Source: Gautieria morchelliformis
Taxonomy: Eukaryota; Basidiomycota; Agaricomycetes; Gomphales; Gomphaceae
DNA: 64,000 bases
Assembly: GCA_015179125.1 (NCBI GenBank)
Contig: WHVA01000536.1
Coordinates: 1-64,000 of the forward strand
Reading direction: 5' to 3'
Part shown: positions 1-43,600 of the stretch, piece after piece
Numbering within the stretch: the first letter of the stretch is position 1
Layout of the letters: the number at the start of each line of letters is the position of its first letter
Made by a program: the position numbers and the translations under genes
The notes under the pieces: generated by a model
Databases searched by the model: none
What the model saw: the letters and a program-made list of their open reading frames with translations, nothing else
Told to the model about the DNA's origin: nothing

Positions 1-1917
1 ATTCTCTACTTCAAGACAGGCAAACTGGTTATGTACAGGCAGCAGGGGCACACATCTCACCCGCTGCGCATCACAAAATCCGACGCATCTTCCGCTTCCG
101 GTGGACCATGTTCCTCATTTTCGGAAATTACTTCCGCAGTGGGCACTCTGCTTATGTCCGCGAGTGCGAGGAACTCTGGAAGGAGCTCGAGTTTCTCCTC
201 CGTGGTCATAAGCCGGATGTCAAAGGCTTGGGGGCACTCGTGAGCATAGTGGCCTGGTTGCCTGGTTGTCGGCATCGGAAGCAGGTGATAGTTCCGTGGC
301 CTTTTCCACGCATGCGGTCAACAGCCATCGGGGTAGGGCCACCCTTTGAGGGAGTGGGGCTAGGGTTCCTAATAGGAGCAGGCGGAGCAAGCGTCGGAAA
401 TACTTTCACTGTGGGAATGAATGTACTTCCGGGTTTTGGCATAGGTGGAGTAGGACGAGCGGAACTGCATGTCATGTTCCGGTTTGTCTCCACGAAGGCC
501 TCATTTGCTTCCCTGTTCCGGGACACCCTCTGCGCAGCTTGGTACCACCCTTCCGTGTCATCGAAATCCGGAGCTTCATCCCCAAGCAGCGCAACTTGGT
601 TCTGGAGTGTCGGATCAAGTCCTCGTCGGAATTTGATGACGATCGTCTTGTCGTCGTCATACTCCGCAAGGTCGATGAGCTCCTGGAAGCGATCGATGTA
701 GTCATGGACCGGATCCTTGGCCTGGTACCAGCTGGTCCCCTCGAGCTTCGTAAGGGCTGTGAGCTGCTCGTTTTTCGGGAAGAACTGGTCGGAAAATGTT
801 TTCTCGAAGGCGTCCCAGTCCCGGAAGTAGTTCCCCTTGCCCTTCGCTTCATGTCGGATCACCTTGTTTGCAAAACGGGCTGCGCGGTCGGACTTGAAAA
901 AGGACAATGCCCAGTGCATCCGAGCCTGGTCGTTTGGAAAGAGGTCCCCGACAATTGCGAAGTAGATGCTGCATGTGTTGAAGAATGCACGTCCCTTTTC
1001 CCGATCTCCGTCAAAGTCCGCCGGAGTTGCGGGTTTGACCTTTTCTAATTTCGAGGACATCCTCTCTTCCGCTGCTTCCGCTTTTCTGAAATCCGGATCA
1101 TCCAGCATTTCATTTCCACCACTTTGTGGAATATCTAACTTAGCCAAAATCGCTTGTAAGGCTGTTTCAATCGCGTCGGTCTTCATCCGGTTCCGCGTCA
1201 ATTCCTCCTCCATATTCCGAAGACGATCGTCCGGATCCATGTCGGAAGGAGAAATATGGGACGGGATTTCCGGGGTTGGGAACTCAACGTAAGAAGAGGG
1301 GCTGTCGTACGCTGTGTGTGCGGAAGAGGTTGCGATCTCTGAGTCGCTGTCTCCGATTCCGAATGCACCTATGGCCAATGCAACGCGCAGTACGACCGCC
1401 GGTCCTCTAGGGGAGAGACTTTTCTGCTGTAAGGGCAACCCTGGCTGGTTGTGGAGATCACACTACCACACAACTGACAAGGGGAAATCCCAAGTCTGTA
1501 TAAATGAACAGAGCATACAAGAGAGGGGATTCTCACCTGACAAGGGGAAATCCAAAGAGAAAAGTCTAAGGACCCCCAATGTCAGCGAGCCCGTATTATA
1601 CTATGCTGCGCAGCCAGGGACAACACTTGGCACCCGCCATCAACCCGGCACCTCCCTGACCACCCTGACCCTTGATCGACCCTTGATGCCACCTATTACG
1701 CGAGTCGCTTGATTTCCGACACTGTTCCGAGGGTGGAACTCGGAAATTGGAGTGGAACTGGCAAGGCGAACAGAACTGGTGGAAGTTCTCCCAGAAGCGG
1801 AATCATTTCCGAAGGCGGAGGCGGAGATGGAATCGGAACCGGAAGCGGAGTCGGAAATGGAGTCGGAACTGGGTGTGGTGTCGGAACTGGAAATGGAAGA
1901 CAGGATGTCCCCTGACA
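1..1917 (-). mobile_element. Ty3/Gypsy element A, cut by the window edge
   Basis: Minus-strand LTR retrotransposon. The visible part is the 5' LTR (1428-1917) followed leftward by gag. The gag product has a retrotransposon-gag domain (for example FRRGLDPTLQNQVALLG) and a C-terminal CCHC-type knuckle region (CFRCRQPG), followed by the start of the region leading to protease. Pol lies beyond the left edge. The LTR lies directly against Plavaka transposase sequence at 1918, so the element inserted in that transposon; only the right-hand flank (gtcac) can be seen, so the TSD cannot be confirmed. The same family is present as an older copy at 22693-34460 and a solo LTR at 2946-3435. Gag is largely open with about one break. 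Confidence 0.85.
1428..1917 (-). repeat. 5' LTR of element A (490 bp)
   Basis: On the minus strand it begins TGTCAGGGGACA and ends CCCTTACA, so it has TG...CA ends. It matches the solo LTR at 2946-3435 over its whole length with few differences. Its U3-side 180 bp is packed with TTCCGACTC/TTCCGATTC-type repeats. Confidence 0.85.
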
Positions 1918-2945
1918 GTCACTCGGCTAGCAGGCACTTTGGTTGCCAGGTACGTTGTGAGAGCCGGGACGATATCCACAGCACCGTGCTTATCCTTGAG
2001 AAATTGCAGGGACACGTGAGGATATGGAGGCTCCTTGGCAAGTTGCCACTTGGTGGAATGTGATGATAACAGGGGAATTGCAATGTCGGCAGGCCTGTCA
2101 GATTCATTGTCACTAATATCATCGGACATTTGCGAGTCTGAGTCTGAGTATGTAGATGTGTAAGTACGATGATCTGTTGTCCAGGCAAGGAAGCTCTTGA
2201 AAGCATCAATGGCTTCATGGCGGGTGAGATACTTGATCATCTGCTGTGTGTAATTCTTTTTGTTGCTAGCACTGTAGCCCTCCTTGGCACAGTCTATATG
2301 CAGGCGCTCTGATAGTTCGGTATTGAAGCCGTCAGCAGAGCATTTGGAATGGATGAGAGCCACAGAATGCTCCATCATGTGGATTTTGGGTATTCGGAAG
2401 TGAGTGCGAATGTGATGGTCAATGAAGACTTGCTTGTTCTGATGAAAGGTGTCGAGTGCATCCTGCAATCGTCGTAATGTTTCAGTAGAATGGGAGGCAA
2501 AAGATGCATAATAAATAAAGTCAATGACGGCTCTGGCCACTGCAGTGACACGTGGGGGCATGGCACCATAGATCAGGCTGGCAAAGACACGCTCCATCTC
2601 TTTGTGTTCACGGCCAGTCTATTGTGAAATTGTCGAAATGCCTTTTTTGAAGTATCGTAGACCTGGATGATTGGGCAAGGCTTGAAATCGTCGATCCACT
2701 TCCTCAGCACCAGCAAGCTGGATGCACCACTTGACCAGATGATCCTTAAACACCCCCTTGTGAAGCTGATGGAGAAGGTCAGGGGTAAAACACTGAAAAA
2801 TATTCGTGTGTGGAAGATCCTCCCAGAATGGTTTGTCCACGGCCCGCGGGCAGAGTCTGCGGATGTCAGGTGAGGGCATAGAAGACCTACAGGTCTTCAA
2901 GGCTTTGAGAGTGCATGTGGGATTACGACTGGGGGCAAGCACCGG
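1918..2945 (-). pseudogene. Plavaka transposase, C-terminal part
   Basis: Two segments (2619-2945 and 1918-2597, different frames) encode the C-terminal part: [21 protein letters not shown], then MERVFASLIYGAMPPRVTAVARA and the typical TELSERLHIDCAKEGYSASN block with a downstream TRHEAIDAF helix. It is cut off at 1917 by the LTR of element A. A purine-rich, acidic stretch (TYSDSDSQMSDDISDNESD) follows the conserved part, as in full-length family members. Confidence 0.75.
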
Positions 2946-3435
2946 TGTAAGGGCAACCCTGGCTGGTTGTGGAGATGACACTACCACACAACTGACAAGG
3001 GGAAATCCAAAGTATGTATAAATGAACAGAGTATACAAGAGAGGGGATTCTCACCTGACAAGGGGAAATCCAAAGAGAAACGTCTAAGGACCCCCAATGT
3101 CAGCGAGCCCGTATTATACTACGCTGCGCAGCCGGGGACAACACTTGGCACCCGCCATCAACCCGGCACCTCCCTGACCTCCCTGACCCTTGATCGACCC
3201 TTGATGCCACCTATTACGCGAGTCGCTTGATTTCCGACACTGTTCCGAGAGTGGAAGTCGGAAATTGGAGTGGAACTGGAAAAGCGAACAGAACTGGTGG
3301 AAGTTCTCCCAGAAGCGGAATCAATTCCGAAAGCGGAGGCGGAGATGGAATCGGAACCGGAAGCGGAGTCGGAAATGGAGTCGGAACTGGGTGTGGTGTC
3401 GGAACTGGAAATGGAAAACAGGGTGTCCCCTGACA
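2946..3435 (-). repeat. Solo LTR of family A in Plavaka
   Basis: 490 bp, same length and ends as the LTR at 1428-1917. It is flanked by a perfect 5-bp target-site duplication accgg (2941-2945 and 3436-3440), and no internal retrotransposon sequence is attached, so it is a solo LTR left by LTR-LTR recombination. It interrupts the Plavaka transposase. Confidence 0.95.
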
Positions 3436-5860: not shown

Positions 5861-6015
5861 CCCCCACAGAACTCCAAAGACAACATCCCGCAATGCAACG
5901 GTGGACCAGGACAATGTTGAGGATGTACATGATTTTTATTGAGTGCACGCTTGCTAGTCTAACATTCATTGCTACTAGCCAAACCGAACTCACAAACGGT
6001 CGTACGACGACCTCA

Positions 6016-6708
6016 TGTTACGTATCGAGATTTCCACTAAGTCGGAACTGGAAAGGACAGCGGCTTCAACTTATAGGTTGCGCCCCCAATGAACTATCGT
6101 CCTAGGTATTTCGGAAATGAGCCGGAAGTCGGAAAGTACTGGACCAGAGGTTTGGTCGGAACTTGTGTCGGAACTGAGGCGGAAAGCAGAAGACGGAAAG
6201 CTGAGAGAGAGACTGAGATCTTGCTAGACTCGCTGTGCTAAGAACAGGAGATGGAGCGAAGGAAATCAAGTATCGAAGGTGATTATCTGATTGCAGAATA
6301 ACAGACATACATGAGGGGGTTTTTATACAAAGCGCAGAGCAACAAGTAATGGTGTTGTACTAAGCAAATTCCGGAGGAGGCAGAAGTCGAGTACAATGTG
6401 TGGGAACTAACTAATTGGGAACAATGGAACTACAAGGGGGGTTCAGGGTAAGGTAGAACAATGGCAAAGAACAAGGGGTCGGGAAAACATATCTGACAAC
6501 GAACTACAAGGGTGACCGGATGTGTGCTTTTGATGGATGGCGAGGTGGGTCCGGTGGGTCCGAGTAATAGAGTCGAAAAAACAAGGGAAATGTACAAGGG
6601 GCGGAATGGCGGAAATGTCGGAGGGGCGGAACGTGTGGCGGAACTATTGGAGGGGCGGAAGGAGTGGCGGAACTGAGGGTCGGAAGTCGGAAATGAACGG
6701 TCGTAACA
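6016..6708 (-). repeat. 3' LTR of element B
   Basis: 693 bp, TGTTACG...CGTAACA on either strand. It matches 13338-14022. It contains about 16 CGGAA pentamers by hand count, clustered at 6046-6190 and 6600-6700, with a motif-free middle. It lies upstream of the antisense ORF and could serve as its promoter. Confidence 0.93.
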
Positions 6709-6721
6709 GTATCTCCCTTCT
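6709..6721 (-). other. Polypurine tract of element B
   Basis: On the minus strand AGAAGGGAGATAC directly precedes the 3' LTR start TGTTACGACC. This is the expected position for plus-strand priming. Confidence 0.6.
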
Positions 6722-6855
6722 AAGGTCGAGCCCCGCGAGACCACAGGTCGGATCACGTGACCTGTGAACAAACGCGTCGGAGTTTGAAAGATAGGCTGAG
6801 GAACAAACGCATCTTCTCTTCATTCCATCATGAGTGCCCCGTAGATTTCTCTAAA

Positions 6856-8055
6856 ATGTCCAGCGCGGAGATGAAACAACACTTCGCTGATATGCTCGCG
6901 CAAAAGGAAATGGCCGAAAAACGCGAGGCTGAGGAAGCTGCGCGGAAAGAGAAAGAACGTCGGGAGAAGGAGCGGAAGGAGCAGGAGAGGAAAGAACGCG
7001 AACGCCGCGAGGAGGAGGAGCGCGTCCGTGAAGAGAAACGGAAACGGAACGCGGCACGAAAGGCTGCTGCGGACAAGGCTGCTGCAGAGAAAGCGGCTGC
7101 GGAGAAAGCGGAAAGGGATCAGGTGAGTCGGAAATGTCCGGCGGAAATGTTCTTGAAATCAACTAAGTTCTTCCAGAATCATGTTCAAGACGAGTCAGAG
7201 TCAGACTCGGAAGGTTCGGTGGAAAGTACACCGACTCCGGAAGGAAAAGGGAAGCAAAAGGAAATTGCGACCCCGGTGAACCTTGTGGCGGAACGGAAAC
7301 GTCGAGCGGACGCATTCCAGAAGGCTCGAAAGGAGAAGTTGAGTCGGATGTTGGAACTCCGTGAACTGGGGCCGGAAAATCCCGCGACTAAGAAGCGGAA
7401 GACTCGGGACGGCGATGAGGAAAAGGCCCCTTGTGACCCATGCGAGTCTAAGGGGGTGGATTGCACGTGGTCGAGCAATCCACGGGAAACGTCGTGCGAC
7501 CAGTGCCGTGACAGGAAAAGGCGCTGCGTCGTGGACGGGTGCGCTTCGAGGCTGGAGCGAAAGAAACAGAAGGTTGAGGAGTCAAATCCGAAGGCGGAAC
7601 CGGGACCGAGCGGAAGGAGGGCCGAGGAAACGTTTCCGGTGACCGGAAAATCGGGACAGGCGGTTCTAAATCGATTCACCATGTCTTATCCTCTTCTTGA
7701 CATTGCCGGTTCGCTGAGGGCTATGTGGGAACAACAACGTGAAATCCGGGACATTATGATCGAAATGGCCGAGGTTCAGCAGCATCAGGTTCTGTCGATT
7801 CAGAACCAGATGACTGTTATGTCCACAGTGCTACAGCAGTTGACGCGGGAAATGAGGTGGCGGAATGATTTGGTCCGGGACCGAATGGATGCGCGGCTGC
7901 GGGAGCAGGGAGTTGGGGCGGAAACGGGTTCGAGCGGTGGGGCGGAAACGAGGGAAAGGGTGGAAACGGAGTTGGTGAGTGTCGAGGTAGGGGAGGTGGA
8001 AAAAGAGCCGGAAGCGGAAGAAGAGGTCGAGGCGGAGACAATGGGGGAGGAGTAG
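6856..8055 (+). CDS. Antisense ORF of element B: coiled-coil Zn2Cys6-type protein
   Basis: 399 codons on the strand opposite gag-pol, from an ATG with A at -3 (ctaaaATGtcc) to a TAG six bases before the end of pol on the other strand. Residues about 10-95 are a dense Glu/Lys/Arg/Ala run predicted to be a long coiled coil. Residues about 193-223 hold C-X2-C-X6-C-X10-C-X2-C-X6-C with a basic loop (CDQCRDRKRRC), which matches the fungal Zn2Cys6 DNA-binding pattern. A basic tract (ATKKRKTRDG) just before it could be a nuclear signal. Residues about 275-350 form a second helical, glutamine-rich region, and the C-terminus is acidic. Known Zn2Cys6 proteins bind CGG triplets; the surrounding element is full of CGGAA. 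Function is inferred; it could regulate or protect the element. Confidence 0.75.
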   Translation: MSSAEMKQHFADMLAQKEMAEKREAEEAARKEKERREKERKEQERKERERREEEERVREEKRKRNAARKAAADKAAAEKAAAEKAERDQVSRKCPAEMFLKSTKFFQNHVQDESESDSEGSVESTPTPEGKGKQKEIATPVNLVAERKRRADAFQKARKEKLSRMLELRELGPENPATKKRKTRDGDEEKAPCDPCESKGVDCTWSSNPRETSCDQCRDRKRRCVVDGCASRLERKKQKVEESNPKAEPGPSGRRAEETFPVTGKSGQAVLNRFTMSYPLLDIAGSLRAMWEQQREIRDIMIEMAEVQQHQVLSIQNQMTVMSTVLQQLTREMRWRNDLVRDRMDARLREQGVGAETGSSGGAETRERVETELVSVEVGEVEKEPEAEEEVEAETMGEE

Positions 8056-8060
8056 GGGTA

Positions 8061-11000
8061 TCAAAGACTTGTAGATAATTTCTTGAAGTGTCGGAAAATA
8101 GAGTAACGGGAAATTAATCGGATTTTGACAAATGACTTGAGAACTGTAAGAATCAATGGGCGTCGGAAATGAGGTCGGAAATGACTAGGGCGTGGAAATG
8201 GGGCCAGGCTTATCAGGATAGGACTTGTGGAAATCAGAGACGAGGTCAGAGGCGTGGTCAAGTTCCGTGGCGGAAATCCACGAGGTCTCTTCGTCGGTGT
8301 TTTCATAGCCTGCCCACTTGACTGGTACTGGAGTTGGCAGCGGTATCGTCTGTCAAGCTTAGAGTTGAGAATTTCCGAGATTTCATATTCCGGTTCTCCG
8401 TCGATGATCACTGGCGGAGGCGGAGGTTGTTCTCGATGCGGAATTGTATTCGGAACTGCGGGCTCAAGCATGGAGACATGGAATACCGGGTGTACTGCAC
8501 GCATATTGTCAGGAAGTCTGAGGGTGAAAGAACGACTGCCGGCCTTAGCGATGATCTCGTAAGGACCGAGGTATTTCTCAGAGAGCTTCTTCGAGGGGCG
8601 AGTGGTGCGGAAGTTTTCCGCTTTGACAAAGGCTTTGTCGCCTATCTCAAATGCCGGTTGCGGAAGGCGTTTCCAATCGGCGGAAGTTTGGTATCTCTTC
8701 TGGGCAGCGGTAATGTTCTCTCGGAGGTGCTGGTGAAGGTCGTCGAGTTCCACAACGAAATCTCGGGCTCTTGCAGAGGCGAGGTCGCGTTCGGGGTGGA
8801 TGGCGAGATTCGGGTGGTAGCCCTTGTTGGCGTAAAAGGGTGAAATTCCGGTGGTAGCGGAAGGCGCATTGTTGTAGGCAAATTCCGCGAGTGGAAGAAG
8901 GTCGGACCAATTGCTATGTTGGTAGTTGCAATAGACGCGGAGATACTGCTCAAGGGTCTGATTAGTACGTTCCGTTTGTCCGTCTCCTTCGGGATGATAA
9001 CCGGAAGTGAAATGGAGCTTCATGTCGAGGGCCTTTCCGAGGGTGCGGAAAAAGGATGACACGAATTCGGATCCACGGTCGGAAGTGACATGGGAAGGGA
9101 TTCCGTGCTTGGAAAAGACGTGGAGCACAAAGAGCTGTGCAAGCTGGGCGGAAGTTATGGTGTCATAGGTCGGAATAAAGATGGACTGCTTTGTAAGGCG
9201 GTCAACGATCACTAGAATGGTATCATAGCCGGATGACTTAGGAAGTTTCTCAATGAAATCCATGGATATCGAATTCCATGGTTGTTCCGGGATCGGAAGT
9301 TGCTTTAGGAGGCCGTAGGGTTTGTGACGTTGAGGCTTGGCTCGCATACAGGTGGTGCATGACTTGCAGTAGTCTTGGACCATCGTGCGGAGGAGAGGCC
9401 AAGTATAGGTGCGTCGGATTATGTCGAGGGTTTTGTTCTGGCCTTGGTGTCCTGAGAGCGGATGATCGTGGCTTTGCTGGAGCACACGAAGTCGTAGATC
9501 GTTGGTGTCCAGAACGTAAATCCGGGACTTGTACCGGATAAATCCATCGGAATCGAGGGACCATCCAGGACTGGTGGGGTCATCGAGGTGGGTTGCGGAG
9601 ATGGGGTCGGAACGGAGTGCGGAACGGATGTCGGAATGGAGAGACTCGGTGTCCATAATAATTGAGGCGCGGAGTAGCGGAAACTGCAATGCTGTGGCAC
9701 GCAGGGACGATGCCAGTTGCTCAGTGGAGAATACTGGGCGGAAATTGTGCGGATTAACGCTGGCATAGTCGCTACTTCCCTCTTTTGGGTAGACGTCCCA
9801 ACGTCTAGTGAGCGCGTCGGGTTTTGCTCCGAGCTTTCCGGGGCGGAAGCGGATCACCATGTTGAACTGTGAGAGGTATTCAGACCAGCGGACTTGACGG
9901 CGAGTCAAAATCTTAGTGGTTGCAAAATACTCAAGGTTCTTATGATCCGTTACAACGTCGATCGGATAAGTTGGACCTTCGAGGTAGTGTCTCCAAATTT
10001 TGAAGGCTTCGAAAATCGCGAGTAGTTCCTTATCGTGGACGTCGTAGTTGAGTTCCGGGGCGGAAAAGGTGCGGGAATGAAAGGCGATCGGATGAATTTC
10101 TCCGTCGCCGGGTGAAATGATGGAAAGAATGGCGGCTAGCGCGTAGTCAGAAGCGTCGGTTTCGAGTACAAGTTGGGCATCAGGAATCCAGAAACCGAGT
10201 ATGGGAGCCGTGGTGAAGGCCGATTTGAGAGCTTCAAATGCGGAACGGCATTCCGGAGTGAAATTCCATGGGGCACCCTTCCTGGTGAGACGCGTGAGCG
10301 GAACAGTAATGTCGGAAAAATTATAAATGAAACGCCGGTAAAAGTTGGCGAAGCCAAGGAAAGACTGCACATCCTTAACACGTCGGGGTTCCGGCCATTC
10401 TTGAATTGCCTTGACCTTGTCCTCTGCCATGGTAAGACCTGTTGGAGAGAGGATGTAGCCGAGGTATTCGACCGTGTCGCGATGCCATTCACATTTCTCT
10501 GCTTTTGCGTAGAGATGGTGTTTGCGTAGACGGCGGAGTACTTCGCGGACATGTTCCCGATGTTTTTCCGGTGTGTCGGAATAGATGAGGATGTCGTCAA
10601 TGTAGACTAGGACGCATACGTCGAGGAGGTCGGAAAATACGTCGTTCATGAATCGCTGAAAAGCGGCGGGAGCATTGGTTAGACCAAAAGGCATGACAGT
10701 CCACTCAAAAGCACCGTAGCGGGTGCGGAAGGTGGTTTTCCACTCGTCACCTTCCCGGATGCGGACAAGGTGATAAGCGTGCCGGAGGTCAATTTTGGTG
10801 TAGATCTTCGCCCTGCGGGGGTGTCGAGTAAGTCGGAAATGCGCGGAAGCGGATATTTGTCCTTTTTAGTGAGGGCATTGAGTCCGCGGAAATCGACGCA
10901 GAGGCGGAGAGATCCATCCTTCTTCTTGACGAAGAGGACCGGAGCGCCGTGCGGAGACAGCGAAGGGCGGATAAAGCCCATGTTGAGATGTTCATCGACG

Positions 11001-11731
11001 AACTCGCGGAGAGTTAGGAGTTCACTTTGCGAAAGAGAGTAGATCGGTCCAAGGGGCGGAGATGCTCCTTCTTCCAAATCTATCTTCAAGTCGTAAGGTC
11101 GATGTTCAGCAGGTTTGTCGGCTTTGGCCTTATTGAACACGTCCGGGAAGTCACGATATTCTTCCGGAACTGAGCTCATGTCGACCGGAGCGGAAGTCGA
11201 GGCGGAACGAGCCTTGACTGAAGCCGAATCGGAGAGGTGAAGCTGGAAAACGGTCGTATCATCTTGCCGTTGCAATACGCGGAAAGCGGTGGCGGAAACG
11301 AGCGCAATTCGAGGAGCTTCGAGGGGCGGAGGTGCTAAAGCGGGACCGGAGTGCGGAACTGAATCCACGAGCGGAGTTGCAGAAGAGGCCTGAGCCATCT
11401 TTGCGGACGACGTCGGAATAGACGGAAGTTGATCCGGGGTACGGAACTGTATTTGACCCAATGCCCAGTTAATCGACGGATTATATCGGGTGAGCCAATT
11501 GTGTCCTAGTACAACGGAACAGCTAGCATCTAGCGGAGTAACGTAAAACGTAACTTCATGGTTGTCCCCAGTAGCGAAACGGATAGACAGATCCACAACT
11601 TGGGAAATTCCCATGTTGGAAGACCCGTCGAAAAGGCGGAGCGGAATAGTCGGAATGTTGCGGGTCGGAAGTTTATGTTTCAAAACAAAGTCGGAATCGA
11701 GGAAACAATGAGTCGAACCGGAGTCGACCAA
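8061..11731 (-). CDS. pol: Pol region of element B (PR-RT-RH-IN-chromodomain)
   Basis: Parts in order on the minus strand: aspartic protease ([11 protein letters not shown], near 11.7 kb); reverse transcriptase ([19 protein letters not shown] near 10.9 kb, [15 protein letters not shown] and YIDD near 10.6 kb); RNase H ([22 protein letters not shown], about 10.2-9.9 kb); integrase with HHCC zinc finger ([14 protein letters not shown]...CKSCTTC, about 9.4 kb), core ([29 protein letters not shown]) and GPY-like segment ([14 protein letters not shown]); then a chromodomain-like [20 protein letters not shown]. The order places the element among the chromoviruses. Not fully open. Confidence 0.9.
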
Positions 11732-11886
11732 TGCTGTAAACGGGGGTGCGGAAATGGTGTCGGAAGTGAGCGGAACAGAGAGAGAGTCGGAGGACGAAAG
11801 AGCGGATGCGTTGAGTTTAACCTCGTTTGTCGCACGAATGGGGTCAACACAGCCCTCAGCTCGTGCGGAGGCCGGAGGACTGCTGA

Positions 11887-13304
11887 CTATTTTTTTGAAT
11901 CCGCAGCGGGAACCGCTTCGGATTTCTCTTCCGTCTTTGCTGCGCGGCCCTTGGCCTTAGCAGCGGAGGCGGAAGCGCGAGTGCAGTCGCGAGCGACGTG
12001 ACCTCCTTTGCCACAGAAGAGGCAAAGGTTGTTGTCCATGCGACGCTGGCGTTCTACAGGGGTTAGTTTTCCGTCCTTCCCAAGTTTGTCGGAAAGATCC
12101 GGGGTGCTCTTCCGGGCATTGGTGTTAGAACCAGAGGCCTGGTTGTTCCGAGGGGTGTTGTTGTTGTTGTTCCGGTTGCCGGAGTTGGATCCGGAACTGT
12201 TGTTGTTGTTGTTTCCGGAGTTGGTGTTTCCGGAATTAGTCTTCTTCTTGTCTTTATCAGACTTCTTGTCGGAAGACTTGTCGTTCTTGCTCTGGGTGGA
12301 AGTTTCGCGAGCGATCTCGGAATGTCTTTCCCAGTAGCGCGAATCGATGGATTGGGCGAGGTTGCGGAGGTCGGTAAGGGTGGCGGGTTTTCCGACGCGG
12401 GCAATTTCATCCTTGATGCGGGATGGCAAGCCCATGTAAAACTGGCGTCGGAGTGCGGCTTCTCCCCATTGGACTCGAGGAGCGAGCTGCTGAAACGTGA
12501 CGATATATTTAGCTATCTTATGAGTGTCTTTCATGCGAAGCTTATCGAGTTCATTTTCCGCATCGGCTTCCATATCAAATGGTCCGAAGTTGCTGCGGAG
12601 TTCGGAAATGAAATTGGGGTAATCGTCGGCCCAGTCGACGAGAGCGAACGGATCCATGAGGGCGGGTTCGAAATAGTCGAGCGCCGTGCCTCGGAGATAG
12701 GAAAGGGCATAATTGACCTTTCGTTCGTCGTCGGGAAAGGCGTCGGGACGATCACGGAAATTGAGTTGAAGCTGAACCAGAAATGGCTGGAGCTTCTTGG
12801 GGTCGGAACCGTCGAACTGATCTGGTTCGCGGACCTTTGTCTTGGGCGTGGTGGTGCTTGGGCCGGGCGCTGGAGTTGTCCGGCTAGCATGGCGATGGCT
12901 TGTGCAAGATCCGGAACTGGCGCGGGCGGAACTGGGTTGGCGGGAATCTGAGGTGGAATTGGAGGTGGAGGACCGCCGGGAGGACCGCCTGGGGGACCGC
13001 CTGGAGGGCCGCCTGGAGGTGGTCCTGGTGGAGGTGGTGGTGGTGGAGCTGGGCGTCGGAATGACGCTGCTGTTTGTTCGCCGCTGCTACTCGTCGAATT
13101 CCCGTCGTAGTCGGGATTGTCGTCGGGATTAGCGTCGGGAACTTCTTCGAAACGTTGCGGAAAAGCATCGGAAAGCTCATCGTCGGCACGAGAGCTGCTG
13201 GAGGGTTCCGCGTGCCTTGGTGCTGCGGATCTAAGACTGCCAAAATAAGAGAGAGCTTCGACAGCTCCTGCTCGAGCTGAAGTAGCTGTGGTACGAGGAG
13301 GCAT
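11887..13304 (-). CDS. gag: Gag region of element B
   Basis: Begins at [13 protein letters not shown] (ATG at 13304), has a proline/glycine-rich N-terminal segment ([15 protein letters not shown]), a retrotransposon-gag domain ([24 protein letters not shown] and [21 protein letters not shown]), an Asn/Ser-rich linker and a CCHC knuckle ([14 protein letters not shown]). Gag forms the particle and packages element RNA. The region is not fully open. Confidence 0.85.
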
Positions 13305-13337
13305 AGTGATAGTTATCGGGTGGGAATCAGATAATAC

Positions 13338-14022
13338 TGTTACGTATCGAGATTTCCACTAAGTCGGAACTGGAAAGGACAGCGGCTTCAACTTATAGGT
13401 TGCGCCCCCAATGAACTATCGTCCTAGGTATTTCGGAAATGAGCCGGAAGTCGGAAAGTACTGACCAAAGGTTTGGTCGGAACTTGAGTCGGAACTGAGG
13501 CGGAAAGCGGAAGACGGAGGAGAGAGACTGAGATCTTGCTAGACTCGCTGTGCTAAGAACAGGAGATGGAGCGAAGGAAATCAAGTATCGAAGGTGATTA
13601 TCTGATTTCAGAATAACAGACATACATGAGGGGGTTTTATACAAAACGCAGAGCAACAAGTAATGGTGTTGTACTAAGCAAATTCCGGAGGAAGCGGAAG
13701 TCGAGTACAATGTGTGGGAACTAACTAATTGGGAACAATGGGACTACAAGGGGGGTTCAGGGTAAGGTAGAACAATGGCAAAGAACAAGGGGTCGGGAAA
13801 ACATATCTGACAACGAACTACAAGGGTGACCGGATATATGGTTTTGATGAATGGCGAGGTAGATCCGGTGGGTCTGAGTAATAGAGTCGAAAGAACAAGG
13901 GAAATGTACAAGGGGCGGAATGTCGGAAATGTCGGAGGGGCGGAACGTGTCGCGGAACTATTGGAGAGGCGGAATGTATGGCGGAACTGACGGTCGGAAG
14001 TCGGAAATGAACGGTCGTAACA
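13338..14022 (-). repeat. 5' LTR of element B
   Basis: 685 bp, TGTTACG...CGTAACA; partner of 6016-6708. About 17 CGGAA by hand count. Reading into the element on the minus strand, the LTR is followed by GTATTATCTGA rather than a TGG-type tRNA complement. Confidence 0.92.
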
Positions 14023-14142
14023 ACTAGTTTTTACGCGGATTGCAACCAAGGTACAAATATTAAATTATTTCCGGAGTTGTGCTGCAGCATTGTTTAATAT
14101 TCTTTGAGTTTTGTATACGACACGTTCTGATAGACCAAAGTG

Positions 14143-35868: not shown

Positions 35869-35881
35869 GGGTTATGGGCCC
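35869..35881 (+). other. Primer-binding site of C1 (half tRNA-iMet)
   Basis: GGGTTATGGGCCC directly follows the 5' LTR and is complementary to the GGGCCCATAACCC anticodon arm of eukaryotic initiator tRNA-Met. Drosophila copia is known to use a fragment of this tRNA as primer. The presumed gag ATG (35874) lies inside the site. Confidence 0.8.
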
Positions 35882-38800
35882 CGGAGACACTTCTGAGAAG
35901 CTATTGGGTGTTGAGAAGCTTGCTACTGATGGAAGTAATTGGCCATTGTGGCGAGCCACTCTCATCAGCTATTTCGAGTCCAAAAATCTACTCAAGCATG
36001 TAGAAGGGAGAGTCACTCGACCTCCTGATCCTCCAGTTATGCCCCCAGGCCATATTCTTACAGAAGCTGAGGAAACTCAGATGGATAAGGCTGAGGAGAA
36101 GCTGGAAAGATACCTTGCTAGAGAAGGACAAGCCAAGACCCAAATCATCGTCTCAGTGTCAGAGTCATTAGCCCTGATGCTACAGAAGCAGAAGACAGCA
36201 AAAGAGACTTGGGATGCACTGGTCAATGAGATGACCAAAAAGCCCAAGATGGTCCTCACCAGCCTGCAGAGACAACTCCGCAGTATGAGATGTCCTGAGG
36301 ATGGAGACTTGAGAGATCATTTGGACAAGGCCCAAGACCTATATGCTCGTCTTAATGAGATGGGAGCCAGAGTTTCCGAAGAAGAATTTATGGACATCAT
36401 CCTTGCGTCACTTCCACCATCCTATGAGGCAGTCATGAATGCCCTTACCACTTCGCTTGAAGAATGCGGGATGCCATTGGTCCCTGATAATATTATTAGG
36501 GTACTAAAGGCTCAGTATGACAGGAAGAAAACACTCCCGCAAGAAGAGCAGGTGTTTATTGGTTCATCTACTAAGAAGGACCAGAAGGGGCAGAAGGCGC
36601 ATATATGCACCAACTGCAAAAAGCCTGGACATTCTATCGAAAATTGCTGGGCTAAAGGAGGTGGTAAAGAAGGTCAAGGACCACGTCAGAAGAAAAAAGC
36701 CAAAGCCAAGAAGAAGAAGAAGGGTAAAGCAAAAGCGAATGTTGCCGAAGAAGAGTCCTCTTCTGAGGAAAGTGGTGATGGGCATCTTGCCTTCACCAAT
36801 TTTGACGAGTGCTCTAATTTCAATTTGAGCACATCCTCAGGAGTTATAGTTATACTCGACACCGGAACGACATCGCATATGACTCCTCACAAAAATTTAC
36901 TGAGGAACTACTGTCAATTCTCACAGCCGAGGACTATCCGAGCAGCCAACAAAGGCACTTTTGATGCCTTCGGTTCAGGACTGCTTGTATTATCCAACAA
37001 GGTTGGAGATAAAACAGTAGAAGTCACGTTGCAAGATACATATTATGCTCCAAAAATTGCTGCTACCCTCGTCTCGATCGGTCGGTGCGATGATGCTGGC
37101 TACGACATTCGACTCGGTGGCCAGAAATGCACAATATCTAATGCTACTGGAAAGGTATTGATGCAAGCACCGAAGGTCAATGGTTTATATCGACTAGACC
37201 TCCAGTCACCAAGTGCTCAAGCCCATATGTGTTTGTCTGCCATGGAAATTCATCAAAAAATGGGGCATATCTCACAGAAGTCCCTACAACATCTATTAAT
37301 CATGGCATGATATTGGGCATTGAACTGAGCTCCACAGGCGATAGAATTGTCTGCGATGCGTGTATTCAGGCCAAGATTGCACGCAAACCTCTTCCTCGAG
37401 AACCCAGAGACCGAACGTCAAAATTCGGTGACAGAATTTATTCTGATGTCTGGGGACCTGCAAGGCACCTCACAATCGATAAGAAGTCATATTATGTCTC
37501 CTTTATCGATGATTACTCAAGAGAATCGGTGATCTATCTCATGGCGAACAAATCAGAAGCATTCTCAAAGTACAAGCTCTATGAGGCTTTAATGCTTCGA
37601 CAGAGAAATGTGCACATCAAGGCACTTGTTTCTGATCGAGGGGGCGAGTATACGAGCTCTGAATTCGAACAGCATCTAGCCAAACAAGGCACGAAGCATC
37701 AGTTGACGGTACACGACACACCAGAGTCTAATGGTGTTGCCGAACGTCTGAACCGAACTCTCACTGAGAGAATCGTGCCATGCTGTTAGAATCAGGCCTT
37801 CCTAAGATATTATGGGGCTATGCAATACAGCATGCCAATTATCTTAGGAACAGGACGCACACAAGAGCTCTACCAGATAAAACGCCCTACGAGATGATCC
37901 ACCATGAGAAACCGAATCTCAAAGACATTCACGCGTGGGGAATGAAGTCTATATTAAGGTCACTCAGGGAGATAAATTGGAAGCTCGTGCCAAGAGAGCT
38001 CGGTGGATAGGAATTTCTGCGCAGAGCCATGGTCATTATATTTATTGGCCTGACTCGCACAAAGTTTCTGTCGAGCGGAATGTTGTGTTTGATTCAGAGA
38101 TGAAGAAGGGAAAGGTCCCAATCATTTCTATTGAGGAATCCAAGCTACCTACGTCTAGAGAGGAGAAGAAGGCCATTCCGGCATCAGTGCCTGTGCCCGG
38201 TCGCTTAGTCAGCGAAGAGGCAAAGATCGAAGAAATTGATGAAAATGCACCAGAGGAATATCTTGAAAGCTGCAACCTATTCAGGGAGTTGATGACAGAC
38301 CTAGAGAAGCTGAACCGATAAGGAGAAGCGAAAGGATCCGTCAACAACAAGTGCAGCCGGCCCCATCAGGTCCCGTAACAAGATCTCAAACCCAGAGACA
38401 AGCTGGCGCACATATGACTACGCTAGCTTACGAGGACGTTGAGGACCATAAAGAAGTTTTATTCGACCAAGAATTATCCTCCGAGATTGATGGCATCAGT
38501 AGCTATGAGTGTGCCATCAGTGCGTTTCTAACCGACGGTCAAAACAATAACAAGGCGCCGGATTTGAGTCAAATTGAACCTAGCAATGCAGACGAAGCTC
38601 TGAATAATCCTATATGGAAGAAATCAATGGACAAAGAGTATGAGGCCCTAATCGACAAGGGAGTGTGGGAACGAGCCAAACCACCTCCTGGAGCCAATAT
38701 TGTCGGTAATAAATGGGTCTACCTTTGGAAGCGTAATCCAGAAGGGAAACCAATAATGCCTAAATCGAGAATGGTCGCCCAAGGCTTCACACAGAAGTTT

Positions 38801-40125
38801 GGAGTCGACTATGATGAGACATACTCACCTGTTGCTCGGTTATCCTCCCTACGGATCATATGCGCCATTGCTGCTAGGAATGACTGGCCTATCCATCAAA
38901 TGGACGTGGACTATGCATACCTCAATGCTACACTACCTGAACCTATTTACATGAAGCAGCCGTATGGATATGAGTCTAGAGACAAAGACGAAGTGCTACT
39001 TTTGAAGAGAGCACTCTATGGCCTCAAACAATCTGGAAGGAATGGTACAAACGTCTAAGTGGTGAATTCCACAAATTAGGATTCACTACGTCAGCCACAG
39101 ATGGGGCTGTATTTTATAGACGTGGCGGAAAGGGGCATGTGATCATTGCAACAGCTGTGGATGATCTCACCATCACAGCTGAGAATCAGTCAGTCCTGGA
39201 CGAAGTCAAACGAGATCTTGCTCAGGTCTTCAGTATGAAAGATCTAGGCGAGATTCATTGGCTATTGAATCTCAAAATCGAAAGAGACTGGCAGAAGAAA
39301 ACTATTGCAATTTCACAACCTGCATACATCGAGAAGATCATCAAAAAATTCAATCTCGAAGATGCAAAGACTTATGCTACGCCCTTGATCCAGCTGTTAA
39401 ATTATCAAAAGACCAGTGTCCTTCTACAGAGAGAGGCAAGAAAGCCATGTCGAAGTTTCCGTACAGGCAAGCTATAGGATCACTGATGTGGGCAGCTGTA
39501 GCCACTCGACCTGACATTGCATTTGCGGTGTCATTGCTTTCGCAATTCCTCGAAAATCCAGGTGGCACACATTGGAATGCAGTCAAACGTGTCTTCAAAT
39601 ATTTGAAAGGCACGAAGCATTACAAGCTCACACTTGGAAGAAATCGAGACGGCTTGATGGGGTATTCAGATGCGGATTGGGGTTCACAGAGTCATAGGCG
39701 TTCGTATTCGGCATACTTATTTCAGATTGATGGAGGCACTGTTTCATGGAGTTGCCAGAAACAGTCGATAGTAGCCCTCTCATCAACTGAAGCCGAATTC
39801 GTCGCCCTGACCCATGCGGGCAAAGAGGCTCTTTGGATGCGCCATTTTATTTCTGAAATATTCCAACCACTGAACAGACCCATCAAAATTTATTCAGACA
39901 ATCAATCAGCCATTGCCATCACGTATGGCACTCAACAACACACGAGAACTAAACATTTCGACATCAGATTATATTTCCTTCGAGATATAATCAAAAATCA
40001 ACAAGCCAAGCTCGTTTATTTGCCAACCGAACAAATGTTGGCAGATATCCTCACCAAAGGACTTCCTAGTCCTAGAGTGAAGATCCTCAATGAACAAATC
40101 GGAATATATTAAGCTTGAGGGGGCG

Positions 40126-40622
40126 TGTTGGGTGCATTGATGCTCCTGCACCAAAATCAAGCATAATATATCCAATTTGTTGTGTGCTTTCTCAATTTCT
40201 TCTCATGTTGTTCTTGTATCATGCATCCATTTCTCTGGTTATTTTCGAAATTTTCCACTCACTCCCTATCTCTCCATTTCATCTTGTTATTCCTACTTTC
40301 ACAAGCGGCTGCACCCAGCGGAGTCTGAAATGACTTCGACGCGCGAGCTCTTGGGCGCTAAAGGGCCGGGTAGTAGTACATGCGCAGTGAAACAGTTTCC
40401 CCCTCTCTCAGTGACAACTAAATTCACTGAGAGAGGCAAGTAAATTAGTCTAGCATTCTTTCGATTTATTAACCTAGAAATCCTCTGTAGTGAATTGTTT
40501 TCTAGGTAGTGTATAATATATTTACAGTGACAACTAGATTCACTGAGAGAGTGAATTGTTTTCTAGTCTATTCTTTTGAGCAAGAAGTCCATTCCTACTG
40601 CCTATAATTCCTGTCCTCTACA
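40126..40622 (+). repeat. 3' LTR of copia C1
   Basis: 497 bp, nearly identical to 35372-35868. Confidence 0.93.
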
Positions 40623-43600
40623 GGGACTCCATGCTTTGAAAAGACATGGAGGACGAAGAGATGAGCGAGCTCTTGTGAGGTTATCTTGTCTGTGGTTGGA
40701 ATGAATATAACTTGCTTAGTGAAACAGTCAACAATCACTAGGATGGAGGTGAACTCGGATGAAGGGGGAAGTTGCTCAATGAAATCCATAGAGATGGAAT
40801 TCCAAGGTTTCTCGGGAACAGGAAGTTGTTTGAGGAGACCATAGGGTTTGTGACGTTGCGGCTTGCTTCGCATACAAGTGGTACACGTCTTGCAATACTC
40901 CTTGACAAAGGATCTAATCCCTGGCCAAGTATAGTCTCGTCGGATCAGCTCCAAGGTCTTGTTGACCCCGAAGTGTCCCGAGAGAATGTGATCGTGCTTG
41001 TATTGCAGGATGCGAAGTCGAAGGTCTTGGGCCGCTGGAACATAGGTTCGGTTGTCAAGCTTGAGAAAGCCCTCGGGGTCTGTGGTCCACCTCGGGTCAT
41101 TAACCAAGCCGAGGTGCGACTTGGCTATGGGGTCCAAGGGGAGGTTTGCTAGTATGTCAGCTCGGATCTGCTCGGTATCAAGCAGCGAAGCGGCTCGGAG
41201 TACGATGGGAGCGAGGTTAGTAGCTCTAAGGGACGATGCCAGCTGGTGCTGAGTAAACACTGGCCGTAGGTTCTGCGGGTTTATGGTGGCATAGTCGCTA
41301 TTCCCCTCTTTAAGGTAGACGTCCCATCGTCTAGTGAGAGAGTCAGGCTTCGTTCCGAGGCGACCAGGTCGGAAGCGTATGGCGAGGTTGAACTGGGAAA
41401 GGTATTCTGACCACCGAGCTTGTCGACGGGTCAAGAGCTTCGTTGTTGAAAAGTATTCGCGGTTCTTGTGATCGGTGATAACGTCGACCGGGTCGCCAGA
41501 GCCCTCTAGGTAGTGTCGCCAGCGTTGAAAGGCTTCAAAAATGGCGAGGAGCTCCTTGTCGTGAACATCGTAGTTGAGCTCGGTAGAGGTGAATGTGCGG
41601 GAGTGGAAAGCGACGGGATGAAGTTCGCCTTCCGAGGTTCGCAGTGATAAGATTGCTGCTAAGGCATAATCTGAAGCATCAGTCTCTACGATTAGTGGAA
41701 GGTCAGGAATCCAGTGAGTTAGGATAGGGGCGGTAGTGAACGCCCTCTTCAACAGGTTGAAGGCCCATCGACAATCCTCGGAAAAGTTCCAAGGGGTACC
41801 CTTGCGGGTAAGTCGGGTGAGAGGAATGGTGATGTCTGAGTAGTTGTGAATGAAACGTCGGTAGAAGTTGGCGAAGCCGAGGAAGGATTGGATGTTGCGA
41901 ACTTTGCGAGGTTCAGGCCAGTCTTGAATGACCTTTACCTTGTCATCCGCCATAGTGAGGCCCTCGGGAGAGAGTATGTAGCCGAGGAATTCAACCGAGT
42001 CGCGATGAAACTCGCATTTGTCTTCTTTGGCGAAGAGGTTGTTGAGTCGCAGTCGTCGCAAGACTTCCTTGACATGTTCAACATGTTTGGAGGGGTCACT
42101 GGAGTAGATTAGAATGTCATCCAAGTATACCACCACACAAACATCCAAAAGGTCGGTGAAAACCTCGTTCATGAATCTCTGGAAGGCAGCAGGGCCGTTA
42201 GTGAGACCAAATGGCATAACCAACCATTCAAAAGACCCATAGCGAGTCCTGAAGGCGGTTTTCCATTCGTCACCCTCGGCCACCCGTACGAGGTGGTAAG
42301 CGTGACGAAGGTCAATCTTCGTATAGATGCGAGCATTCTTTGGGCATCGAGTAAGTCAGCAATCAATGGCAATGGATACCGATCTTTTTTCGAGATTTTG
42401 TTTAAACCTCGGAAGTTGACACACAACCGAAGTGAGCCATCTTTTTTGCGAACAAACAATACCGGTGCACCATGAGGCGAGCGTGAAGGTCGGATGAAAC
42501 CGATGTTCAAATGCTCGTCGATGAACTCGCGAAGTGCTTTGAGTTCAGACGCTGAGAGGGAGTAGATGGGACCGATAGGTGGCGAGGTCCCTTCTTCGAG
42601 GTTGATTTTGATATTGTGGGGTCGGTGGGGAGCTAGAGTGTCAGCGCGTGCTTTGCTGAACACATCCGCAAATTCGTGATATACTTCGGGAACATGTTTC
42701 TTAACGTTCTCAGGAAGCTCGGAAGAGCTTCCTCCCGATGTTGCCCCTCTGGCGAGGAGCGCAGGCGAAGCCAGATTGAGCTGAAACACTTCGGACCCTT
42801 CCAATCTAGATGCGCGCATGAAAGCGGGTGCATTGATTAGGGAAACGAGGGGTGCTTGCAACTTCGGAGGCGAGGTCGGAGGCGGGGGCGAAGATGCCGT
42901 AGGCGAGGTCGAAGTCGTAGCCGAAGCTGAGCGGGCTGACGTCGCCGTGGTCGCTGGAGCCGTTGTTAGGTCGATGGTCTTGAAAGTAATACTGCCCAAT
43001 ACCCAGTCAATCGACGGATTGTAGCGGGTGAGCCAGTTGTGGCCAAGTACCACCGAGCAACTCAAGTCGAGCGAGGTTACGTAGAAGGTAACCCATTGTT
43101 GTTCGCCGGTCGGAAAGCAAATGCAGAGGTCTAGAGCTTGGGTAATGGTAGTGTTAGTACTACCGTCAATTAGTTTCAAGGGTATAGGAGAAACAGGATA
43201 AGCAGGCATAGAGTACTTCTGGACAAATCTGGATTCAATAAAACAATCTGAGGACCCGCAGTCAACTAATGCAACAAAAGCGACGTTGGGAAGCGAAGGT
43301 GAGGTTAGATCTACATGAAGGGAATCTTTGGACAATGAATGAGAAGCGGCGCTGAGTCTGAGCACACAGGTGAGGTTACCGCAATCCTCGGATCGTGTGG
43401 TTCCGAGGTTGCTACCTATTTTTTCACCTCCGTAATGGAGGCCGAAGTCCCCTCGTTAGGGGTCTTCGCTGCCCGACCTTTAGAACCACTACTGTTGGCA
43501 GACTTGTTCTTCGGGCAGTCCTTGATGATATGACCTTTGGTGCCGCAAAGCAGACAAAGGCCTTGGTCGACACGACGTTGGCGCTCCTCGGGAAGTAGTT

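What the first reader, a model, noticed from the sequence alone, without database searches (positions are those of the whole stretch)
6856..8055. Whole antisense gene with a Zn2Cys6-type cluster inside a Ty3/Gypsy chromovirus
Between pol and the 3' LTR of element B lies a 399-codon ORF on the opposite strand. It keeps an ATG in good context, a long coiled coil, a basic tract, an exact C-X2-C-X6-C-X10-C-X2-C-X6-C pattern and an acidic tail. Antisense extra ORFs are known from some plant LTR elements (for example Grande), but a fungal transcription-factor-type cysteine cluster in this place is unusual. That this ORF is open while gag-pol shows about two breaks suggests it was kept under selection, or was simply lucky.
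Basis: partly seen in the sequence, partly recalled or inferred. Interest (0 to 1): 0.78.

Follow-up and report, generated by a model that had tools for sequence, protein, structure and literature searches.

The report
Spliced antisense gene in fungal retrotransposon
A jumping gene of what is probably a fungus carries, on its opposite strand, a second and apparently spliced gene for a DNA-binding-like protein that selection has kept in many copies and that has been exchanged as a unit between otherwise near-identical copies.

Summary
The ORF is real (6856-8055, +), antisense between the chromovirus pol and the 3' LTR, with the six-cysteine pattern. It is not one 399-codon ORF: a spliceosomal intron (7123-7176) interrupts it. 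Unspliced, the frame is open in 1 of 58 type-A copies, the window itself; spliced, in 35 of 58 (54 of 78 over all types). GTGAGT...AG is kept in 78 of 78. At least 204 loci match; 89 of 131 integrase hits have the gene tail to tail within 430 nt, none on the same strand. dN/dS between types is 0.13-0.22. So this is a selected, spliced antisense protein gene. New here: it is an exchangeable cassette. Types A and B differ at dS about 1.0, while pol differs at dS about 0.1 and LTRs are about 97% alike; one A/B pair shares 702 of 702 pol bases but 75% of gene bases. The cysteine cluster resembles Gal4-type Zn2Cys6 with swapped halves, below Pfam's cut-off. Most likely role (inferred, no RNA or binding data): a self-encoded nuclear regulator, comparable to plant Retand/Grande antisense ORFs and HTLV-1 HBZ. 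My library searches listed no fungal report.

The parts
6016..6708 (-). 3' LTR of element B (element reads on the - strand)
   Evidence: 693 nt, paired with 13338-14022; 24 mismatches in 685 aligned
13338..14022 (-). 5' LTR of element B
6709..6721 (-). polypurine tract beside the 3' LTR (reads pyrimidine-rich on +)
   Evidence: sequence; the same in the 18 leaders aligned
6709..6780 (+). conserved block upstream of the antisense gene, its likely promoter (inferred); belongs to the shared backbone, not to the cassette
   Evidence: 1 difference in 81 aligned columns over 6701-6780 between L011 (type A) and L055 (type B)
6742..6766 (.). 8-bp inverted repeat around ATCACGTGAC (6752-6761); this E-box-like core is unchanged in 18 of 18 aligned leaders
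   Evidence: sequence
6830..6844 (+). upstream ATG, in frame with the gene in 17 of 18 aligned leaders; in the window a 4-codon reading that ends in TAG
6781..8180 (+). exchangeable cassette: antisense gene with its flanks; left edge 6781-6800, right edge about 8160-8200
   Evidence: type A against type B identity drops at these edges
6856..7122 (+). exon 1 (89 codons from the second ATG)
6913..7122 (+). charged, alanine-rich N-terminal helix (E/K/R 69%)
7123..7176 (+). spliceosomal intron, GTGAGT...CAG, 54 nt here, 51-57 nt in 78 copies
7177..8055 (+). exon 2, ending in a stop
7432..7527 (+). six-cysteine cluster, C-X2-C-X6-C-X10-C-X2-C-X6-C, Zn2Cys6-like with halves swapped
7687..7872 (+). 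C-terminal helix, coiled-coil (dimerization) candidate
7897..8052 (+). acidic tail
8061..10865 (-). pol frame as it reads in this copy (RT, RNase H, integrase, SH3); the frame breaks within the chromodomain, whose rest lies in 8185-8352
   Evidence: chromodomain scored in a sister copy
11887..13304 (-). gag, in two broken frames; CCHC knuckle in the second

Best explanation
It is an accessory gene of a fungal Ty3/Gypsy chromovirus, coded on the strand opposite to gag-pol between the end of pol and the 3' LTR. It is transcribed from its own promoter on the PPT/3' LTR side and its transcript is spliced (one intron). The sense RNA is what is reverse transcribed, so an intron in antisense orientation survives retrotransposition. 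The protein (381 residues from the second ATG in the window's gene, 9 more from the upstream ATG in other copies) has a charged helix, a basic region, a Zn2Cys6-like cluster with its halves in swapped order, a coiled-coil candidate and an acidic tail. I infer a nuclear, probably dimeric DNA-binding regulator of the element's own transcription, acting through the conserved E-box/palindrome block and LTR. The gene has moved between element lineages as a cassette, so several divergent types sit on one backbone. Shown by comparison: location, copy number, intron, purifying selection, conserved cysteines, cassette exchange. Inferred: actual splicing and expression, zinc and DNA binding, regulation. 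The existence of the selected spliced gene is about 0.95 likely; the regulator role about 0.55.
For: Intron: GTGAGT and AG in 78 of 78 full-length copies (AG in one, L040, after undoing an alignment shift); length 51-57 nt, not a multiple of three in 52 of 58 type-A copies, while exon 1 and exon 2 keep frame in 71 and 66 of 78; open unspliced 20 of 78, spliced 54 of 78. Selection: dN/dS 0.19 (window against type B, L057), 0.14 (window against L050), 0.14 (L057 against L050), 0.09-0.20 (window against the five other type-A representatives); other frames give 1.2 or more, except the mirror frame (0.20-0.33), which holds 4-9 stop-bearing codons. Position: 89 of 131 integrase hits have the gene convergent within 430 nt, 0 on the same strand; in the 85 loci held then, pol lies opposite and downstream in 85 and the LTR upstream in 84. 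Number: 204 loci after merging hits, from capped lists. Cysteines: 53 of 53 intact copies. Cassette: A x B median identity LTR 0.974, pol 0.981, gene 0.744; dS 1.02 in the gene against 0.095-0.135 in pol for four B copies; L011/L055 pol 702/702, gene 855/1140; the gene data reject holding young A and B together (AU p 0.014), while the LTR tree joins them at 100/100. A third type, L087, lies beside a 99% identical pol.
Against: No RNA data: splicing and expression are inferred. Type B's intron is 51 nt and stop-free in 18 of 18 copies, so splicing is not forced there. Zn_clus stays below the Pfam cut-off; the second half alone has only 11.1 bits, E 0.44. Nothing shows DNA binding or an effect on the element; no convincing PDB relative (best E 0.2). 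24 of 78 copies are broken even when spliced. 42 of 131 pol hits had no listed antisense gene; one of the 42 was looked at and has a copy broken in exon 2. The pol tree supports A+B only weakly (64/78), and LTR and pol data do not reject A or B as separate groups (AU p 0.10-0.33), so the mixing of A and B in those trees is not itself shown. One pair (L044/L072) has dN/dS 0.49. Other species could not be searched.
Confidence: 0.6

Rival explanations
1. The protein is an accessory factor with another job: countering host silencing, steering integration or importing the pre-integration complex, rather than regulating transcription.
For: Selection and wide presence fit any useful protein. Basic tract, charged helix and coiled-coil candidate are compatible with chromatin or nucleic-acid binding. 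Several divergent types on one backbone fit an arms race.
Against: The only recognisable domain is a cysteine cluster of a DNA-binding kind, and the E-box-like core upstream of the gene is unchanged in 18 of 18 leaders.
Confidence: 0.27
2. The antisense transcript, not the protein, is what matters: a natural antisense RNA that limits gag-pol expression.
For: Convergent arrangement with pol; an antisense transcript running past 8055 would overlap pol mRNA (inference).
Against: Codon-level constraint: 155 of 283 substitutions at third positions and dN/dS 0.19 between window and type B, exons mostly in frame, invariant cysteines.
Confidence: 0.06
3. A captured host transcription-factor gene carried as a passenger without use to the element.
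For: Zn_clus-bearing genes exist in this genome (17 hits); an intron is present.
Against: Purifying selection between divergent types, fixed place beside pol, swapped half order. In a use-free passenger, substitutions would be neutral.
Confidence: 0.05
4. The type A/B difference reflects fast evolution of the gene in place rather than exchange.
For: Accessory genes may evolve fast; LTR and pol data do not reject A and B as separate groups.
Against: Synonymous sites are at dS about 1.0 in the gene and about 0.1 in the neighbouring pol; non-coding flanks inside the edges mostly diverge too and the edges are sharp; one A/B pair has an identical pol segment; the gene tree conflicts with the LTR tree.
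Confidence: 0.03
5. Chance open frame in GC-rich, purine-rich DNA.
For: Type B stays open through the intron (18 of 18).
Against: 204 loci, conserved protein, dN/dS, intron structure.
Confidence: 0.01

Closest known systems
Plant Retand / Grande / RIRE2 antisense accessory ORFs, TRP28 domain in Retand (PMC11963269: abstract, Background, Discussion and word-search passages read)
   Same: Gene antisense to gag-pol between pol and the 3' LTR, present in most copies; DNA binding predicted for TRP28; Grande's product is nuclear (as stated in that paper)
   Different: Plant, non-chromovirus Gypsy lineage; a different domain by name; the word 'intron' does not occur in that paper's held text. Here: chromovirus, Zn2Cys6-like cluster, intron, gene exchanged between backbones
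HTLV-1 HBZ (PMC1459196: outline and abstract read)
   Same: Antisense gene expressed from the 3' LTR side, spliced; its product inhibits Tax- and c-Jun-dependent transcription
   Different: HBZ is a bZIP protein and translation mostly starts in the exon within the LTR; here a cysteine-cluster protein starts outside the LTR; no expression or repression data here; no sequence relation claimed
Gal4-type Zn(II)2Cys6 transcription factors (Pfam PF00172)
   Same: Six cysteines with permitted spacing (consensus recalled), basic residues in one half, coiled-coil candidate and acidic region
   Different: Half order swapped (first half matches profile 15-36, second half 1-13, weak scores); below the gathering score; coded by a retroelement
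[quoted passage not shown]
   Same: Chromoviruses; a figure legend there names an additional ORF
   Different: The passages seen give neither strand nor domain of that ORF, and 'antisense' and 'opposite' do not occur in the text; whether it is the same thing is unknown
Laboratory retrotransposition indicator genes with an intron in an antisense marker (recalled, no call)
   Same: An antisense gene with an intron inside an LTR element
   Different: There the intron follows the sense RNA and is lost; here it follows the antisense gene and is therefore kept

Membership tests
Ty3/Gypsy chromovirus | RT, RNase H, integrase in Gypsy order | tested here: met
Ty3/Gypsy chromovirus | C-terminal chromodomain | tested here: met
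   PF00385 33.2 bits (cut-off 25.1) in sister copy L053; split by a frameshift in the window
Ty3/Gypsy chromovirus | LTR pair and polypurine tract | tested here: met
   but no matching target-site duplication in the 12-base flanks
Gal4-type Zn2Cys6 factor | six cysteines in C-X2-C-X6-C-X5-12-C-X2-C-X6-8-C (consensus recalled) | tested here: met
   53 of 53 intact copies
Gal4-type Zn2Cys6 factor | basic half first, then the second half | tested here: not met
   first half matches profile 15-36 (17.8 bits), second, basic half 1-13 (11.1 bits, E 0.44)
Gal4-type Zn2Cys6 factor | score over the Pfam gathering cut-off | tested here: not met
   14.4-18.3 bits for the whole cluster against 21
Gal4-type Zn2Cys6 factor | zinc and CGG-DNA binding | not testable with these tools
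Retand/Grande-type antisense accessory gene | antisense ORF between pol and 3' LTR in most copies | tested here: met
   89 of 131 integrase hits, a lower bound
Retand/Grande-type antisense accessory gene | TRP28 domain | not tested
   no TRP28 model was at hand
Retand/Grande-type antisense accessory gene | non-chromovirus Gypsy lineage (Retand) | tested here: not met
   chromodomain present
HBZ-like antisense regulator | spliced antisense transcript from the 3' LTR side | tested here: inconclusive
   intron conserved in 78 of 78 copies; no RNA data
HBZ-like antisense regulator | bZIP domain | tested here: not met
   Pfam lists Zn_clus only
HBZ-like antisense regulator | represses sense transcription | not testable with these tools
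   needs a reporter assay

The most novel reading that the evidence does not exclude
The antisense gene is a multi-type compatibility module: elements that share LTRs and pol carry one of several long-separated antisense regulators (at least A, B and the L087 type), kept apart by selection for difference and swapped by recombination, much as phages swap immunity repressors. It would set which copies regulate, exclude or tolerate one another, or let new copies escape control.
Probability: 0.22. Interest if true: 0.87.

Novelty: new variant of a known kind. Interest (0 to 1): 0.72.

Why it matters
Antisense accessory genes were known in plant Retand-type elements and human T-cell leukaemia viruses. 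A selected, intron-bearing one in a fungal chromovirus suggests that LTR elements have evolved antisense regulators more than once. The sharp exchange of this gene between near-identical backbones makes it testable whether retrotransposons carry interchangeable self-control modules. It may also matter to annotators: genes of this kind could be listed as host transcription factors in fungal genomes (inference, not checked).

Tried and rejected
Chance ORF, passenger host gene and pure antisense RNA were rejected or weakened by the codon pattern. The idea that L034 and L044 carry a foreign pol was rejected: beyond the break they run into gag of the same element, so pol is deleted internally while the antisense gene stays open when spliced. 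What follows the break in L050 and L070 found no match in the window or the other loci held and was left. Searches without a relative: viral contigs, PDB (best E 0.2), NCBIfam (one hit far below its cut-off). Literature searches listed, by title and start of abstract, no antisense ORF in a fungal LTR element; they cover open PMC papers and those words only. PMC2864245 and PMC3248453 were searched for words: 'antisense' in neither; [quoted passage not shown] Conservation of CGGAA in the gene was compared for five pairs (9 of 17, 9 of 20, 4 of 17, 11 of 16, 13 of 19, against 0.24, 0.24, 0.21, 0.33, 0.63 for all 5-mers): mixed, not pursued.

Full report
What is there. The window is C600 of an unnamed 122-Mb, 1113-contig assembly. 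That the host is a fungus is inferred: Zn_clus domains, a fungal domain (recalled), give 17 hits in it and none in the 14 control genomes, and the intron is short. Element B lies on the - strand between LTRs 13338-14022 and 6016-6708 (24 mismatches in 685 aligned positions; the 12-base flanks show no matching target-site duplication). Pol has RT, RNase H, integrase and SH3 domains. A sister copy, L053, shows the end of pol with a chromodomain (33.2 bits), ending 150 nt from the antisense stop. In the window the chromodomain is frameshifted and gag is in two frames.

The intron. Among the first 27 full-length copies aligned, 26 of 26 others carry one extra base at the same place inside 7123-7176; three of them (L002-L004) also lack one base elsewhere in it, so their total equals the window's. 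That stretch reads GTGAGT...CAG. In 78 full-length copies (of 85 loci then held; 7 incomplete ones left out) it begins with GTGAGT and ends with AG in 78 of 78 (one, L040, after undoing an alignment shift), with lengths 51-57 nt. In 58 copies of type A and its older relatives (here 'type A'; they include the divergent L070) the intron length is a multiple of three in only 6, while exon 1 keeps frame in 52 and exon 2 in 46. Read through, the frame is open in 1 of 58, the window itself; read spliced, in 35 of 58. Type B: 18 of 18 open either way, since its intron is 51 nt and stop-free. The other two (L050, L085): 1 of 2 either way. Totals: 20 of 78 unspliced, 54 of 78 spliced; with a demand for ATG at the start, 53 of 78 spliced. 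So the 399-codon ORF of the window is an intron read-through. An intron in this orientation makes sense only for a + strand transcript, and it is not removed from the sense RNA that is reverse transcribed, so it persists through transposition (inference from the known cycle).

The start. The usual protein is therefore nine residues longer at its N-terminus.

Selection. Nei-Gojobori dN/dS on spliced codon alignments of eight hand-picked representatives: window against type B (L057) 0.197/1.019 = 0.19; window against L050 0.198/1.399 = 0.14; L057 against L050 0.14; over the 13 pairs between types 0.13-0.22; window against five other A-type copies 0.09-0.20. Of 28 pairs, 27 lie at 0.09-0.28 and one, L044/L072, at 0.49. 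Control, five pairs: the other frames give ratios of 1.2 or more, except the mirror frame on the - strand (0.20-0.33), which holds 4-9 stop-bearing codons. Third positions carry 155 of 283 substitutions between the window and type B. The six cysteines with exact spacing are kept in 53 of 53 intact copies; the 53 coding sequences include 52 different ones.

Place and number. Searches give 204 loci after merging; both lists are capped (104 of 1047 and 136 of 732 candidates scored), so this is a lower bound. Of 131 hits of the window's integrase C-terminus (131 of 6250 candidates scored), 89 have one of these loci convergent within 430 nt, most often at about 320 nt, and none on the same strand. 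Of the other 42, one was fetched (L086): it has the gene, with a break in exon 2. In the 85 loci held, pol lies on the opposite strand, downstream, in 85, and the LTR upstream on the same strand as the gene's reading in 84; L025 lacks the LTR match. Two copies, L034 and L044, have lost most of pol and join the pol end to gag, yet keep the antisense gene open when spliced.

The cassette. Type B copies are 93-97.5% identical to the window over LTR and pol end, but about 70% over the gene. The drop begins at 6781-6800, just after the conserved E-box block, and ends at about 8160-8200, near the pol stop (nine loci against the window, two A/B pairs). Of 34 young A-type copies offered, 32-33 were usable, and 15-18 of 18 B copies: median A x B identity is 0.974 for LTR (495 pairs; within A 0.977, within B 0.978), 0.981 for pol (594 pairs; 0.984, 0.987) and 0.744 for the gene (576 pairs; 0.968, 0.979); 78 of 594 pol pairs reach 0.99. 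L011 and L055 share 702 of 702 pol bases and 743 of 754 LTR bases (13 gap columns), but 855 of 1140 gene bases (100 gap columns). dS between window and B is 1.02 in the gene and 0.095-0.135 in pol for the four B copies measured; ten loci in all were measured for pol. Trees of 23 hand-picked loci out of 63 usable: the LTR tree joins young A and B against older copies at 100/100; the pol tree does so at 64/78, not significant; the gene tree has B and young A each at 100/100, and holding them together is rejected (AU p 0.014; the group was chosen after the identities had been seen). The LTR and pol trees intermix A and B, but the AU tests do not reject either as a group of its own (p 0.10-0.33), so intermixing is not shown. 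The contrast in dS, the sharp edges and the identical pol pair are what show exchange of the gene rather than fast evolution in place. A third type, L087 (exon 2 only, open), is 60% identical to the window's protein, 76% to B and 78% to L050, and lies beside a pol 99% identical to the window's. By the identity columns, loci such as C862, C648 and C432 (88-89% to L050, beside 99% identical pol) would be a fourth type; their sequence was not fetched.

The protein. Residues 20-89: 69% E/K/R, 1% large hydrophobics, more like a charged single helix than a coiled coil (a/d hydrophobics 35% in the best register). Residues about 264-321: best register 75% against 31% elsewhere, a coiled-coil candidate; A is counted as hydrophobic in both. 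The last 52 residues have net charge -14. The cysteine cluster scores 14.4-18.3 bits against Zn_clus (cut-off 21). Scanned apart, its first half matches profile 15-36 (17.8 bits) and its second, basic half 1-13 (11.1 bits, E 0.44): weak matches, in reversed order. The Zn2Cys6 fold is near-symmetric (recalled), so such an order could still bind two zinc ions; this is inference. No convincing PDB relative was found; structure prediction was off.

How it probably works. An antisense promoter between PPT and ATG, with ATCACGTGAC unchanged in 18 of 18 leaders inside an inverted repeat, drives a spliced mRNA. Its product is imported to the nucleus, dimerizes through the C-terminal helix, binds DNA by the cysteine cluster and adjusts the element's own transcription. 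Promoter activity and everything after 'spliced mRNA' are inferred from anatomy and from the analogy with HBZ (PMC1459196, abstract) and the plant Retand-type ORFs (PMC11963269, Discussion). The acidic tail would fit activation as well as repression.

Known or new. The kind is known: antisense accessory genes between pol and 3' LTR. For a fungal chromovirus, my searches listed no report; they cover only open PMC papers, and one survey (PMC2864245, passages) names an additional ORF of unknown function in a Tcn1-like figure legend without strand. With an intron, this cluster and exchange between backbones I call it a new variant of a known kind.

Noticed in passing
6016-14022: The pentamer CGGAA occurs 118 times on + in element B (11 expected from base composition; 97 from its own 4-mer counts, so longer words of this kind are common too) against 29 TTCCG, in LTRs, leader, intron and ORFs. 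Pairs 12 nt apart occur 12 times (1.7 expected), six of them in the two LTRs, hence not independent. CGG is the half-site of Gal4-type factors (recalled), so these could be binding sites of the encoded protein; untested.
   Followed up: partly
L034, L044: Elements that have lost most of pol (join from pol end to gag) yet keep the antisense gene open when spliced: possible non-autonomous derivatives.
   Followed up: partly
window 206-3245: A second gag-like ORF (206-1240, -; Retrotrans_gag) beside a 300-nt repeat pair, 97% identical, at 1428-1727 and 2946-3245, in a stretch with many CGGAA and TTCCG.
   Followed up: no
window 6004-6015 and 14023-14034: Flanks of element B show no target-site duplication, as if the element ends were recombined.
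   Followed up: no
L051-L068: All 18 type B copies held have a 51-nt intron without stop, so both spliced and unspliced mRNA would give a full-length protein.
   Followed up: no
L050, L070: Beyond about 8370 (L050) and 8220 (L070) of the window's numbering these copies no longer match pol; what follows matched nothing held.
   Followed up: no
window 40595-44648 (-), 35874-40112 (+), 57274-61155 (-): Another Gypsy-like pol/gag and two Copia-like elements by their ORF translations (labels recalled, not scanned).
   Followed up: no
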